Positions 33,086-37,254 of a stretch of DNA of 64,000 nt are shown here, piece by piece (positions within the stretch are counted from its first letter, which is position 1; each line of letters begins with the position of its first letter). Made by a program: the position numbers and the translations under genes. Origin of the DNA: Ignisphaera sp. Its GTDB lineage: Archaea > Thermoproteota > Thermoprotei_A > Sulfolobales > Ignisphaeraceae. The DNA lies in the NCBI GenBank assembly GCA_038735125.1, contig JAVYNU010000004.1:62001-126000 (forward strand), in the 5' to 3' direction. The notes under the pieces were generated by a model. That model ran no database searches, was not told the origin of the DNA, and saw nothing but the letters and a program-made list of their open reading frames with translations.

Positions 33086-34474
33086 ATGTGCGGAATAGCT
33101 GGCTATATGGGTTCAGGCGATGTGATAACAACAATTCTATCCCTTCTCATAGAACTTCAGCATAGGGGGCAGGAGTCAGCCGGTATAGCTGTTGCTACAA
33201 GAGGTGGCGAAATACATAGGGTGGTGGGGAAAGGTCTTGTTGTAGAGGCTCTAAACAATGAGAAAATCTCACAGCTGAGAGGTGTCGACGAGATTGTTGG
33301 GGGTATAGGGCATGTAAGGTACTCCACATCTGGTGGATACCTAGACTCGCAGGCCCAGCCAATTCTAGTAGGCGATGAGAATTTTAAAATGGCTGTTGCT
33401 TTCAATGGTACAATAGCAAACTTTTTTAGCATGGCAAAGCTCCTCGGGATTGCGGATGCTGATGGAGATGCCAAAGTTTTGACAGCATTTCTATTTAGGC
33501 TGGCTAAGGAGTTTGGAAACGATGTTGTCGAGGCTTTGAAGGTTCTTCCACACTATGTTGTTGGGGGATACAGCATTGTCGTATTGACATCTGAGCCGAG
33601 GATTGTTGTTGCAAGAGATCCGCATGGGTTTAGACCCTTAGCGATATTGCATACAGGTAGCGATTTCTATGTAGCGTCGGAAACAGCTGCGCTAGATATT
33701 GTTACCGGGCATCTGTGGAGGTGGAGAGAGGTTTTGCCAGGCGAGATCATATCTTATGATGGTTCCTCACTCGAGTTCACCAAATCACCAATTTCGACCC
33801 CAATATCTCCATGTGTTTTTGAATATGTCTACTTCTCTAGACCGGATAGCGTATTTAATGGGGTTAGCGTCTATGTTGCTAGGGTTAGAATGGGTGAGGA
33901 GCTTGCGAAAGCTGCTCCGGCAATGGGCGACGTTGTTGTTCCTGTTCCTGATAGTGGTAGAGCTGCTGCAATAGGTTTTAGCAGAGCTTCTGGGTTGCCG
34001 CTTGAGGAGGGCATTGTTGTTAACAAATATGTTGGTAGAGGGTTTATAGCGCCTCCAAGGTCTAGAGAGATCATATCTAGGCTCAAATACGGTTTTATAA
34101 AGAGTGTTGTGAGTGGTAGGAGGGTTGTTCTCATCGATGATTCTATTGTTAGGGGCACCACCATGCGGAGTATAGTGAGGAGGCTTAGGGAGACTGGCGC
34201 TAGCGAAGTACATGTAAGGGTTGCCAGCCCCCCATTCAGATACCCGTGCTTCATGGGCATAGATGTGGCCTCTAGAGAACAGCTACTGGCTTGGAGGGCA
34301 ATGGGCTTAGACGAGATTGCAAGGGCTTTGAATGCTGATAGCGTTGGATACAACACTATAGAGGGGCTTAGAAAAGCTGTTGGAATACCTCTGATATGCC
34401 ATGCCTGCTTCACTGGGCTATACCCATTCAAAGGGCTTGATGCTGATGCCCTAGAAAAGATGTTTATTAGGTGA
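33086..34474 (+). CDS. purF: Amidophosphoribosyltransferase PurF
   Basis: First committed enzyme of purine synthesis: PRPP plus glutamine gives phosphoribosylamine. N-terminal Ntn glutaminase: Cys2 in MCGIAGYMG, HRGQESAGIAV, GHVRYSTSGG and FNGTIAN are intact. The PRTase half has the flexible loop NKYVGRGFI and PRPP loop VVLIDDSIVRGTTMRS. Four cysteines match the B. subtilis-type [4Fe-4S] cluster (CVFEYVYFSRPDS, YPCFMGID, CHAC). 462 residues. It is followed 6 bp later by a degenerate paralogue. Confidence 0.96.
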   Translation: MCGIAGYMGSGDVITTILSLLIELQHRGQESAGIAVATRGGEIHRVVGKGLVVEALNNEKISQLRGVDEIVGGIGHVRYSTSGGYLDSQAQPILVGDENFKMAVAFNGTIANFFSMAKLLGIADADGDAKVLTAFLFRLAKEFGNDVVEALKVLPHYVVGGYSIVVLTSEPRIVVARDPHGFRPLAILHTGSDFYVASETAALDIVTGHLWRWREVLPGEIISYDGSSLEFTKSPISTPISPCVFEYVYFSRPDSVFNGVSVYVARVRMGEELAKAAPAMGDVVVPVPDSGRAAAIGFSRASGLPLEEGIVVNKYVGRGFIAPPRSREIISRLKYGFIKSVVSGRRVVLIDDSIVRGTTMRSIVRRLRETGASEVHVRVASPPFRYPCFMGIDVASREQLLAWRAMGLDEIARALNADSVGYNTIEGLRKAVGIPLICHACFTGLYPFKGLDADALEKMFIR

Positions 34475-34480
34475 TGTGAT

Positions 34481-35758
34481 ATGAGTGGCCTCCTAACTAT
34501 CTATGCATTCGACGAGCTTTGGAACCTCTCAAATATTCTAAGATATGGATTGATGGCTCTACAGCATAGAGGCTCCCAATACTATGTGGCCTGCACCAAT
34601 GAGAGTAATAGCCTCAAATGCTACGAAGATGAAGATATTGATGTTGCAAAAAAGATTTCAAGCCATGTGACAATAGCCTCAACCTATAGCTATCAAACTG
34701 AGAATCTTTTCGATGTAAAGAAAAGCGATGGCTATGAAATTGTCGCTATTGTTGATAGGCCGTGGAGCGCCATAAGCGATTTTACATCTGCCCTAGTTTT
34801 GTCGTTGAAGAACAGCAGAAATAGGATTGATGCATTCAGAAATACTATAAAAACTTTCCAGACAGATCACAGTGTTTCAATTCCGTCGCTCATGGTTTTG
34901 ACAAGCGATAGAGAGGTTTTTGTTTGGAGGGGCCCACAAGGATTTACAACATTTGCTTTGGGTAGCTATGGATTTGACATGGCTATAGCATCATCGGAAA
35001 GCGTTGCTATAGATATTCTTGGTGGTGATTTAAAGAGGTTTCTAGGGTGTGGAGAAGGTGTTTACATATCGAGGTACCTGTTCAAAACATTTTCAACAGA
35101 TTTCAGCAATGGTCACAGTGGGGTTTGTCTCTTCGAGCTTCTCTACCTATCTCGACACGACTCCATTGTCCATGGCATTAGCGTCTACGAGTTTAGAAAA
35201 GCTCTTGGCACAGAACTTGCAAAATATCTTGATAGAGAAGTTGATGTTGTTGTTGGTGTTCCTGAAACGGCTTTGCCATATGCTATAGGCTTTGCAAACA
35301 GTATTCAAAAAGCCTTTGACATGGCCTTTGTTGCTACAGGTGGGAGAAGGAGATCCATGCTGGCAAGCGATCCCTTCGAAAAAATTGTTGCTATACACCT
35401 TAAGATGAATCCTATTAGAAGCTCGCTAGAGGGCAAGAGGATTGCAATAGTTGATGACAGCATGGTGACAGGATCTACCATGAAGACCGTTTCCCAGATC
35501 CTAAGATTCAGAGTTGGTGTAAAAGAGATCCACCTATTCATAGCATCTCCACCCCTGGTGCACGGCTGCCCCTACAACGTTATGAGGCTTGATGTACAGA
35601 ATCTTCTAGCGGCGAATCTATCTAAGGAGCTTGCCAAAAGCTATCTAGAGGTTGACTCTCTTCACTGGCTCTCGAAAGAAGATGTTGACAGGGTTGCTAG
35701 GAGGTTTGGAATAAGATTTTGTGGAAAATGCTTTGGTGTAGACTATTTTGGGGGGTGA
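34481..35758 (+). CDS. PurF paralogue lacking both active sites
   Basis: A 425-residue homologue of PurF along its full length, in the same operon. Position 2 is Ser (MSGLLTIYA) instead of the catalytic Cys. The glutaminase Arg motif HVRYST reads IASTYSYQ, and FNGT reads VDRP. In the PRTase half the flexible loop KYVGRGFI reads ATGGRRRSM. The PRPP loop is mostly kept (IAIVDDSMVTGSTMK) but Arg is replaced by Thr. All four cluster cysteines remain (GVCLFELLYLSRHDS, VHGCPYN, CGKC). It is probably a non-catalytic partner or regulator of PurF, by inference. GGTG stands seven bases before the ATG. Confidence 0.85.
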   Translation: MSGLLTIYAFDELWNLSNILRYGLMALQHRGSQYYVACTNESNSLKCYEDEDIDVAKKISSHVTIASTYSYQTENLFDVKKSDGYEIVAIVDRPWSAISDFTSALVLSLKNSRNRIDAFRNTIKTFQTDHSVSIPSLMVLTSDREVFVWRGPQGFTTFALGSYGFDMAIASSESVAIDILGGDLKRFLGCGEGVYISRYLFKTFSTDFSNGHSGVCLFELLYLSRHDSIVHGISVYEFRKALGTELAKYLDREVDVVVGVPETALPYAIGFANSIQKAFDMAFVATGGRRRSMLASDPFEKIVAIHLKMNPIRSSLEGKRIAIVDDSMVTGSTMKTVSQILRFRVGVKEIHLFIASPPLVHGCPYNVMRLDVQNLLAANLSKELAKSYLEVDSLHWLSKEDVDRVARRFGIRFCGKCFGVDYFGG

Positions 35759-35763
35759 GAGAT

Positions 35764-37254
35764 TTGAAGGTACTCATCATAGGATCTGGCGGAAGAGAAC
35801 ATGCCATAGCCAAGCTCATTAAAAGAAGTGGTTTGGGACCAAGAATATTTGTTGCTATGGACTATAGGAACCCCGGTCTAGAGAGAGAAGCCAGCGAGAC
35901 TGGGGGTAAGTGGTTCATAGCGCCTACCACAAGCCCTGAAAAGATTGTTGGTGTGGCTGAAGAGGTATCCCCAGACCTAATAGTCGTTGGTCCCGAGGAG
36001 CCGCAGTTCGCCGGTGTTACAGATGCTCTAAGAAACAAGGGGTTTACAGTCTTTGGAGCATCAATGCGCTGCGCAGAAATTGAGAAAAGCAAGGTGTTTG
36101 CAAGAACCCTCATGTGGAAATATGGTATTGAAGGCAGGCTATACTTCAAGGCGTTTGCAGATGTTGAGGAGGCTAGGAAGTTCATAGAGTTTGCAGGCGA
36201 TGTTGTCATAAAACCTGCTAGACAGGCAGGTGGAAAGGGTGTAAAGGTTGTCAGGGATACCCAGGCATATCTTTCTAGGGATAGGGCAGAGGTTAAGAGG
36301 AGCTACGTCGAAAAGCTGTTCAATGAAATGAGCAGTTATAGAGATATAGACTACAAGATTATTGTTGAGCAGAGAGTTGAAGGAGTTGAATACACAGCAA
36401 TGGTTATAACAGATGGGGATACAGTACTACCACTACCTCTCATACAAGACCATCCACATGCCTTCGAATATGATACAGGCCCTGAGACTGGCGGTATGGG
36501 TAGCATACAGGGCCCTGGATGGACACTGCCATTCATAACAGATGAGGAGTATAGAAAGACCATAGAAATTGTCTCGAACGTTCTAAAGGCTCTGGCCAAA
36601 GAGATTGGAGAGCCGTACATAGGCGCTTTCGCTGGGCAAATGATGCTCACAGGTGTTTGGGGGCCAACAGTAATAGAGTTTTATAGCAGATTCGGCGACC
36701 CCGAGGCATCCAACCTTGTTCCAATAGTTGAAAGCGACTTTCTAGAGATTTTGGATAGAGCTGCTGAGAGAAGGCTTGCAGGCGCGAAGCTCAGGATAAA
36801 CGAGGAGATTGTGACAATAGTCAAAGCTGTTGCACCCGCTGGGTACCCAGACGATAAACGCCTTGCTAGCTCTCATCCAATATCTATCGACGAGGCTAGG
36901 ATAAGGGAGCTTGGTTGCGAGACCTTGTATGCAAGTGTTGAAATGAGGTCTGACGGGATCCTCTACACAAAGGGTTCTAGAGCCTTTGAAATTGTTTGCC
37001 ATGGCAACAACTATGAAGAGGCATACAAAAAAGCTGAGAATGCTGTTACACACATCAGTACATTGGATGGGTGGCCACTGTTCTACAGAAGAGATATTGG
37101 CTCTAACGAGCTCTTGGAGGATAGGAAAAGAGTTGCAAACAGAGTTAGGCAAGTGTATATGGCTAGGGCAAAGAATGGTTTGATCGGCAAGATACTTGTT
37201 TGGGTTCCTGGTGAGGGTATATTGGAGAATCCCCTCATCGGTTTTGTGAGGTGA
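35764..37254 (+). CDS. purD: Phosphoribosylamine-glycine ligase PurD
   Basis: ATP-grasp ligase joining phosphoribosylamine and glycine to GAR. N-terminal LKVLIIGSGGREHAIAKLI is characteristic; VIKPARQAGGKGVKVV and MVITDGDTVLPLPLIQDHP follow, with GGMGSIQGPGW and FYSRFGDPEASN. About 497 residues, longer than the bacterial 430 but typical of this archaeal group. TTG at 35764 is chosen because GGTGAGAGAT precedes it and it starts exactly at the conserved motif. The open frame extends 45 bp further into the previous gene. Confidence 0.95.
   Translation: MKVLIIGSGGREHAIAKLIKRSGLGPRIFVAMDYRNPGLEREASETGGKWFIAPTTSPEKIVGVAEEVSPDLIVVGPEEPQFAGVTDALRNKGFTVFGASMRCAEIEKSKVFARTLMWKYGIEGRLYFKAFADVEEARKFIEFAGDVVIKPARQAGGKGVKVVRDTQAYLSRDRAEVKRSYVEKLFNEMSSYRDIDYKIIVEQRVEGVEYTAMVITDGDTVLPLPLIQDHPHAFEYDTGPETGGMGSIQGPGWTLPFITDEEYRKTIEIVSNVLKALAKEIGEPYIGAFAGQMMLTGVWGPTVIEFYSRFGDPEASNLVPIVESDFLEILDRAAERRLAGAKLRINEEIVTIVKAVAPAGYPDDKRLASSHPISIDEARIRELGCETLYASVEMRSDGILYTKGSRAFEIVCHGNNYEEAYKKAENAVTHISTLDGWPLFYRRDIGSNELLEDRKRVANRVRQVYMARAKNGLIGKILVWVPGEGILENPLIGFVR

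What the first reader, a model, noticed from the sequence alone, without database searches (positions are those of the whole stretch)
34481..35758. A PurF look-alike with dead active sites but an intact Fe-S set sits inside the purine operon
It is directly after a complete purF. Cys2 became Ser, the glutaminase Arg and Asn motifs are gone, and the PRTase flexible loop is lost, yet four cysteines matching the [4Fe-4S] ligands remain and the reading frame is clean. Keeping the structural cluster without catalysis suggests a partner that forms mixed oligomers with PurF, perhaps sensing nucleotides, PRPP or oxygen.
Basis: partly seen in the sequence, partly recalled or inferred. Interest (0 to 1): 0.65.

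Follow-up and report, generated by a model that had tools for sequence, protein, structure and literature searches.

The report
Glutaminase-dead second PurF of archaea
Next to the gene for the first enzyme of purine synthesis, this heat-loving archaeon carries a second, altered copy that can no longer use glutamine but keeps the pocket for the other substrate; the copy was first described in 2011, is older and more widespread than was reported then, and its job is still unproven.

Summary
The ORF at 34481-35758 is real. It is the PurF paralog named PurF' by Brown et al. 2011 (PMC3261824, section read), whose function was left untested. The glutaminase is dead: Cys1, the glutamine-binding Arg and the oxyanion Asn are gone. 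All four Fe-S cysteines are kept. Across 141 PurF', the PRPP-site residues are almost invariant (Arg311, Lys328, Asp345, Asp346, Gly351: 141 of 141; B. subtilis numbering), and the flexible loop is replaced by a family-specific motif, not deleted. The first 124 PurF' form one clade (support 1.0), evolve under purifying selection (dN/dS 0.04-0.17) and, in the order searched, co-occur with PurF (71 of 73 PurF genomes). PurF' also occurs, in tandem behind purF, in Asgard and Theionarchaea lineages, beyond the Crenarchaeota of 2011. Some Asgard copies still have Cys1 but already lack the Arg: transitional forms. Best reading: a PRPP- or nucleotide-binding partner subunit of PurF. The 2011 ammonia-dependent synthase idea remains possible. 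No complex or activity was shown here.

The parts
34481..35758 (+). purF' gene (425 codons + stop)
   Evidence: one clade with 123 other PurF'
34484..34486 (+). Ser2 in place of the nucleophile Cys
   Evidence: Cys kept in 1 of 124 and then 8 of 141 PurF'
35126..35128 (+). Cys216, Fe-S ligand equivalent (C236 of B. subtilis)
   Evidence: alignment; 134 of 141
35567..35569 (+). Cys363, Fe-S ligand equivalent (C382)
   Evidence: 141 of 141
35720..35731 (+). Cys414 and Cys417, Fe-S ligand equivalents (C437, C440)
   Evidence: 140 of 141 each; the exception L246 ends at its contig end
35336..35413 (+). family-specific PRTase flexible loop (residues 286-311) with invariant Arg291 and Lys308
   Evidence: A1 invariant columns; R311 and K328 equivalents 141 of 141
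35453..35479 (+). PRPP loop DDSMVTGST (residues 325-333)
33086..34474 (+). purF, intact catalytic paralog and presumed partner
   Evidence: TIGR01134 388.9 bits over the 350 cut-off; Cys1, Arg72, Asn102, loop NKYVGRGFI
35764..37254 (+). purD, next gene downstream (start codon inferred TTG)
   Evidence: purD follows purF' in 71 of 124 loci, and 30 of the 124 end before it could be seen

Best explanation
PurF' is an ancient PurF paralog that lost the glutaminase but kept the PurF fold, the Fe-S ligands and a PRPP pocket with a re-specialised flexible loop. It most likely works as an obligate partner subunit of PurF: PurF binds glutamine and makes phosphoribosylamine, and PurF' binds PRPP or a purine nucleotide in its PRTase site and sets PurF activity through shared oligomer contacts. 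Shown by sequence: loss of glutaminase residues, retention of PRPP and Fe-S residues, co-occurrence, tandem position, purifying selection. Inferred: the hetero-oligomer, ligand binding and the regulatory role.
For: Co-occurrence: in the class search all 71 genomes with PurF' also have PurF, and 71 of 73 PurF genomes have PurF'; the two exceptions are drafts of 76-77% completeness, one with its purF at a contig end (counted by hand from its rows). Tandem: purF ends 13 bp or less before, or overlaps, the open frame of purF' in 95 of 124 loci and in 17 of 17 further Asgard and Theionarchaea loci. PRPP pocket: P281, R311, K328, D345, D346 and G351 141 of 141, S347 140, T353 138 plus 3 Ser, R/K321 141; the E. 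coli equivalents R342, K349, T333, T374 and R371 contact the PRPP analogue in simulations (PMC7953260, passages), and mutating the D-D-S residues cuts plant enzyme activity (PMC7056826, passages). Glutaminase: R72 0 of 141, Cys1 8, N102 11. The Ntn domain keeps its fold although it is glutaminase-dead, which suggests a structural or allosteric use. dN/dS like PurF. One clade.
Against: No interaction data. Mirror-tree: the PurF/PurF' partial correlation given PurD is 0.18, below PurF/PurD 0.61 and PurF'/PurD 0.54 (75 loci); given PurL or PurM it is 0.55 and 0.61, only slightly above the other pairs (35 loci each). 29 of 124 PurF' loci showed no purF upstream on the same strand; some are short loci, others are truly unlinked. 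An intact-looking PRPP pocket fits an enzyme as well as a sensor; R350 is kept in only 62 of 141. Co-occurrence is also expected of any purine-pathway gene.
Confidence: 0.5

Rival explanations
1. PurF' is an ammonia-dependent PRPP amidotransferase (proposal of Brown et al. 2011): it makes phosphoribosylamine from PRPP and free NH3.
For: PRPP-site residues conserved; the proposal is printed in PMC3261824, section 6; purD, which uses the product, follows in 71 of 124 loci, 30 of the 124 ending before it could be seen.
Against: An intact PurF is always present too; the NRY segment of the flexible loop is gone in 141 of 141, R350 is kept in only 62 of 141 and F313 is replaced; the useless Ntn domain is retained.
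Confidence: 0.25
2. PurF' hands the heat-labile phosphoribosylamine from PurF to PurD (scaffold or channel).
For: Gene order purF-purF'-purD in the window; purD directly downstream in 71 of 124 loci.
Against: It does not explain the invariant PRPP pocket. Operon order alone is weak. PurF' also occurs in Bathyarchaeota and Asgard MAGs that are probably not all hyperthermophiles (inference).
Confidence: 0.12
3. PurF' is the unidentified crenarchaeal IMP cyclohydrolase, on an Ntn fold like PurO.
For: The crenarchaeal IMP cyclohydrolase is unidentified (PMC6797443, passages); PurO is an Ntn fold without nucleophile (same passages); PurO absent in 200 of 200 Thermoproteota genomes and PurH found in only 11 of 200.
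Against: Lineages f18 and f50 lack PurF' and have only an MGS hit of CarB size, yet must make IMP (inference). Most genomes of the phylum searched, probably Thermococcales (inference), have PurF but no PurF', although Pyrococcus lacks a known enzyme too. No PF07826 match to the window protein at E<=1.
Confidence: 0.03
4. PurF' is a PRTase with another acceptor or another pathway role.
For: Own conserved loop motif and PRPP pocket.
Against: Strict tie to purF and the purine operon.
Confidence: 0.1

Closest known systems
PurF' of Crenarchaeota (Brown et al. 2011, PMC3261824)
   Same: Second PurF cluster, no N-terminal Cys, close to purF in the purine gene cluster
   Different: That paper treats it in Crenarchaeota and does not mention, in the section read, the Fe-S ligands, the PRPP pocket, the loop motif, or copies in Asgard or Theionarchaea
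PurF / GPATase (TIGR01134; 1gph, 1ao0, 1ecb, 6lbp)
   Same: Same two-domain fold (Z 36-39, rmsd 2.6-3.0 over about 400 residues), Fe-S ligands, PRPP loop
   Different: No nucleophile Cys, no Gln-binding Arg, changed loop; 151 bits against the cut-off 350
Regulatory pseudo-paralogs such as PRPP synthase-associated proteins or HisZ (recalled, not tested)
   Same: Works-like analogy: an inactive paralog tunes the catalytic subunit
   Different: Unrelated families; no complex shown for PurF'

Membership tests
PurF glutamine PRPP amidotransferase (TIGR01134) | N-terminal Cys nucleophile | tested here: not met
   Ser2; 8 of 141 PurF' keep Cys
PurF glutamine PRPP amidotransferase (TIGR01134) | Gln-binding Arg (E. 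coli R73) | tested here: not met
   0 of 124 and none of the 17 added
PurF glutamine PRPP amidotransferase (TIGR01134) | curated score 350 bits | tested here: not met
   151.1 bits
PurF glutamine PRPP amidotransferase (TIGR01134) | Ntn plus type I PRTase two-domain fold | tested here: met
   AF2 pLDDT 89.9, pTM 0.90; Z 36-39 to PurF structures
PurF glutamine PRPP amidotransferase (TIGR01134) | PRPP loop DDS..G.T and flexible-loop Arg and Lys | tested here: met
   the NRY part of the loop is absent
PurF glutamine PRPP amidotransferase (TIGR01134) | amidotransferase activity | not testable with these tools
   no assay
PurF' (Brown et al. 2011) | separate clade from PurF, lacking Cys1 | tested here: met
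   124 of 124 in one clade, support 1.0; Cys1 absent in the window protein
PurF' (Brown et al. 2011) | located near purF and purine genes | tested here: met
   window operon; 95 of 124 and 17 of 17 tandem
PurF' (Brown et al. 2011) | direct match to the 2011 locus tags | not tested
   supplement of the paper not readable here
[4Fe-4S] protein | four Cys ligands | tested here: met
   all four in the window protein; 134, 141, 140 and 140 of 141 in the family; the cluster itself not shown
PurO IMP cyclohydrolase | PF07826 profile | tested here: inconclusive
   no match at E<=1, but a remote relation is not excluded

The most novel reading that the evidence does not exclude
In many archaea of at least three lineages the first committed step of purine synthesis is run by a two-paralog enzyme, PurF plus PurF', in which a glutaminase-dead subunit with its own conserved PRPP loop is required for, or regulates, catalysis. 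It arose by one ancient duplication in which the Gln-binding Arg was lost before the nucleophile Cys, as the Asgard copies that still have Cys1 suggest.
Probability: 0.4. Interest if true: 0.7.

Novelty: new member of a known kind. Interest (0 to 1): 0.42.

Why it matters
The function of PurF' has been open since 2011. PurF is the committed, feedback-controlled step of purine synthesis; if archaea run it as a PurF/PurF' pair, homomeric bacterial PurF is the wrong model for them, and PurF reconstitutions from these archaea without PurF' could mislead. The conserved PRPP pocket and the transitional Asgard copies give concrete residues and proteins to test.

Tried and rejected
Pseudogene: rejected; dN/dS 0.04-0.17 in seven pairs, open frames almost throughout. 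The 124-protein set was picked from frames of at least 350 codons, so broken copies would be missed; one 313-codon frame (L177) was dropped.

PRTase site dead: rejected by the residue counts.

IMP cyclohydrolase: searched PurO, PurH and MGS; the distribution does not favour it. PurO did not appear among the fold matches listed, which proves nothing.

Mirror-tree coevolution: no support for a special PurF/PurF' tie. Archaeal PurF with and without a partner: loop residue 308 is Tyr or Phe in 87 of 116 with partner and 40 of 42 without (three f50 rows not verified as partner-less were dropped); the losses sit mainly in Sulfolobaceae-type loci, so about one event, weak.

Later papers on PurF': none seen in the listings of searches; the PurV search gave nothing relevant. 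PurF and PurF' cannot be folded together with the tools here.

Full report
What is there. The window holds a purine operon in which an intact purF (33086-34474) is followed after 6 bp by a 425-codon ORF (34481-35758) and then by purD. The own genome has exactly these two PurF-type proteins by this query. The second is 34% identical to PurF over 292 aligned positions and matches the NCBI purF model at 151 bits, below the cut-off of 350 that PurF itself passes with 389. Two contigs of the same genus group have lengths identical to named records, Ignisphaera sp. RSNS13 and a Desulfurococcaceae MAG, so the window is probably from an Ignisphaera-like archaeon (inference).

Prior art. Brown et al. 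2011 (PMC3261824; section 6 read whole, other passages) found two PurF clusters in the Crenarchaeota studied, named the one without Cys1 PurF', noted that it lies near purF, and proposed an ammonia-dependent PRPP aminotransferase to be tested. They also state that the reason for the duplication is not established. Searches showed no later functional work in their listings. So the finding is a member of a known but uncharacterised family.

Family. From the genome search and genome-contig hits I collected 124 distinct PurF' and 119 PurF of at least 350 codons. All 124 PurF' form one clade, support 1.0, no exception. Searches then showed PurF'-strength hits (above 460 bits) in 13 of 148 genomes of the phylum of L107 (Candidatus Jordarchaeum, an Asgard archaeon) and 6 of 115 of the phylum of L108 (Theionarchaea). 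Seventeen of these were added to the alignment, not to the tree, giving 141. Named PurF' loci also come from Bathyarchaeota, Methanomethylicota and Nitrososphaeria or Thaumarchaeota MAGs. Many Thermoproteota families lack PurF' (for example f17, f18, f50).

Residues (B. subtilis mature numbering, 141 PurF'). Glutaminase: Cys1 8, Arg72 0, Tyr73 not among the six commonest, Asn102 11 (Asp 94, Glu 18), Asp127 47. Fe-S: C236 134 (7 Ser, all in loci of families f3 and f4), C382 141, C437 140, C440 140, the missing one being cut off by a contig end. PRTase: P281 141, D or E282 141, Y242 140, R311 141, S or T312 138, R or K321 141, K328 141, D345 141, D346 141, S347 140, R350 62, G351 141, T353 138 (3 Ser). 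The loop segment N-R-Y found in many PurF is absent in 141 of 141 and replaced mainly by Thr-Gly. Among 116 archaeal PurF with a partner, 42 without and 15 bacterial, the glutaminase and Fe-S residues are essentially complete. In published work the E. coli equivalents of these loop and PRPP residues contact a PRPP analogue in simulations (PMC7953260, passages), and changing the D-D-S residues lowers the activity of the plant enzyme (PMC7056826, passages). The E. coli to B. subtilis mapping uses a constant offset of 21 in this stretch, which I inferred.

Transitional copies. Eight Asgard-phylum PurF' (L107, L246, L250, L251, L252, L253, L255, L256) keep Cys1, Asn102 and Asp127 but not Arg72. 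This suggests that glutamine binding was lost, and the PRTase loop changed, before the nucleophile went. Other PurF' of the same phylum (L247, L248, L249, L254, L257) have already lost Cys1.

Linkage and selection. purF lies directly upstream of purF' in 95 of 124 loci and 17 of 17 additional ones. Of the 29 others, many are loci with short flanks; in several f8 genomes purF lies about 6 kb away, and in f7 genomes it is unlinked. purD follows in 71 of 124, purM in 7, none in 16, and 30 loci end. In the class search, 73 of 197 genomes have PurF, and 71 of these have PurF' (counted by hand; the 12 further genomes with only weak hits were not counted). dN/dS (NG86) in seven genome pairs is 0.04-0.17 for PurF' and 0.05-0.12 for PurF (ratios computed by hand).

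Structure. The AF2 model of the window protein (34-row alignment) has mean pLDDT 89.9 and pTM 0.90. Its best matches are PurF structures, Z 36-39, rmsd 2.6-3.0 over 399-407 residues. The loop region is the least certain inner part (mean pLDDT 73 and 69 in the blocks 281-290 and 291-300).

Interpretation. A merely structural relic should not keep every PRPP contact while losing every glutamine contact, and a free enzyme should not need to stay with PurF for so long or to keep a useless Ntn domain. I therefore favour a PRPP- or nucleotide-binding partner subunit of PurF (0.5), above the 2011 ammonia-dependent synthase (0.25), a hand-off factor to PurD (0.12) and another PRTase role (0.1). The IMP cyclohydrolase idea is attractive because that enzyme is unidentified in Crenarchaeota (PMC6797443, passages) and PurO is an Ntn fold, but lineages without PurF' also lack the known enzymes, so I give it 0.03. 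Physical association, ligand binding and activity are all untested, and the mirror-tree test gave no positive support.

Noticed in passing
L107, L246, L250-L253, L255, L256: Asgard-phylum PurF' with Cys1, Asn102 and Asp127 still present but no Gln-binding Arg: apparent transitional forms.
   Followed up: partly
L050-L061, L063-L067 and other f5 loci: PurF itself has lost the N-R-Y segment of the flexible loop (e.g. VRTLVAKRSFI) in the Sulfolobaceae-type family, which has PurF'; only 2 of 42 partner-less archaeal PurF lack loop Tyr or Phe.
   Followed up: partly
L068, L071, L077, L080, L081, L084, L085: Fe-S ligand C236 is Ser in these seven PurF' only; the other three ligands stay.
   Followed up: no
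L211, L212: In two f23 genomes purF' and purF lie on opposite strands and their frames meet; f23 PurF' are mostly shorter (about 380 aa) and match the profile only over the PRTase part.
   Followed up: no
f18 and f50 genomes: These lineages show only a CarB-sized MGS hit and no PurF'; PurO was absent in 200 of 200 genomes of the phylum. Their IMP cyclohydrolase is also unidentified by these searches.
   Followed up: partly
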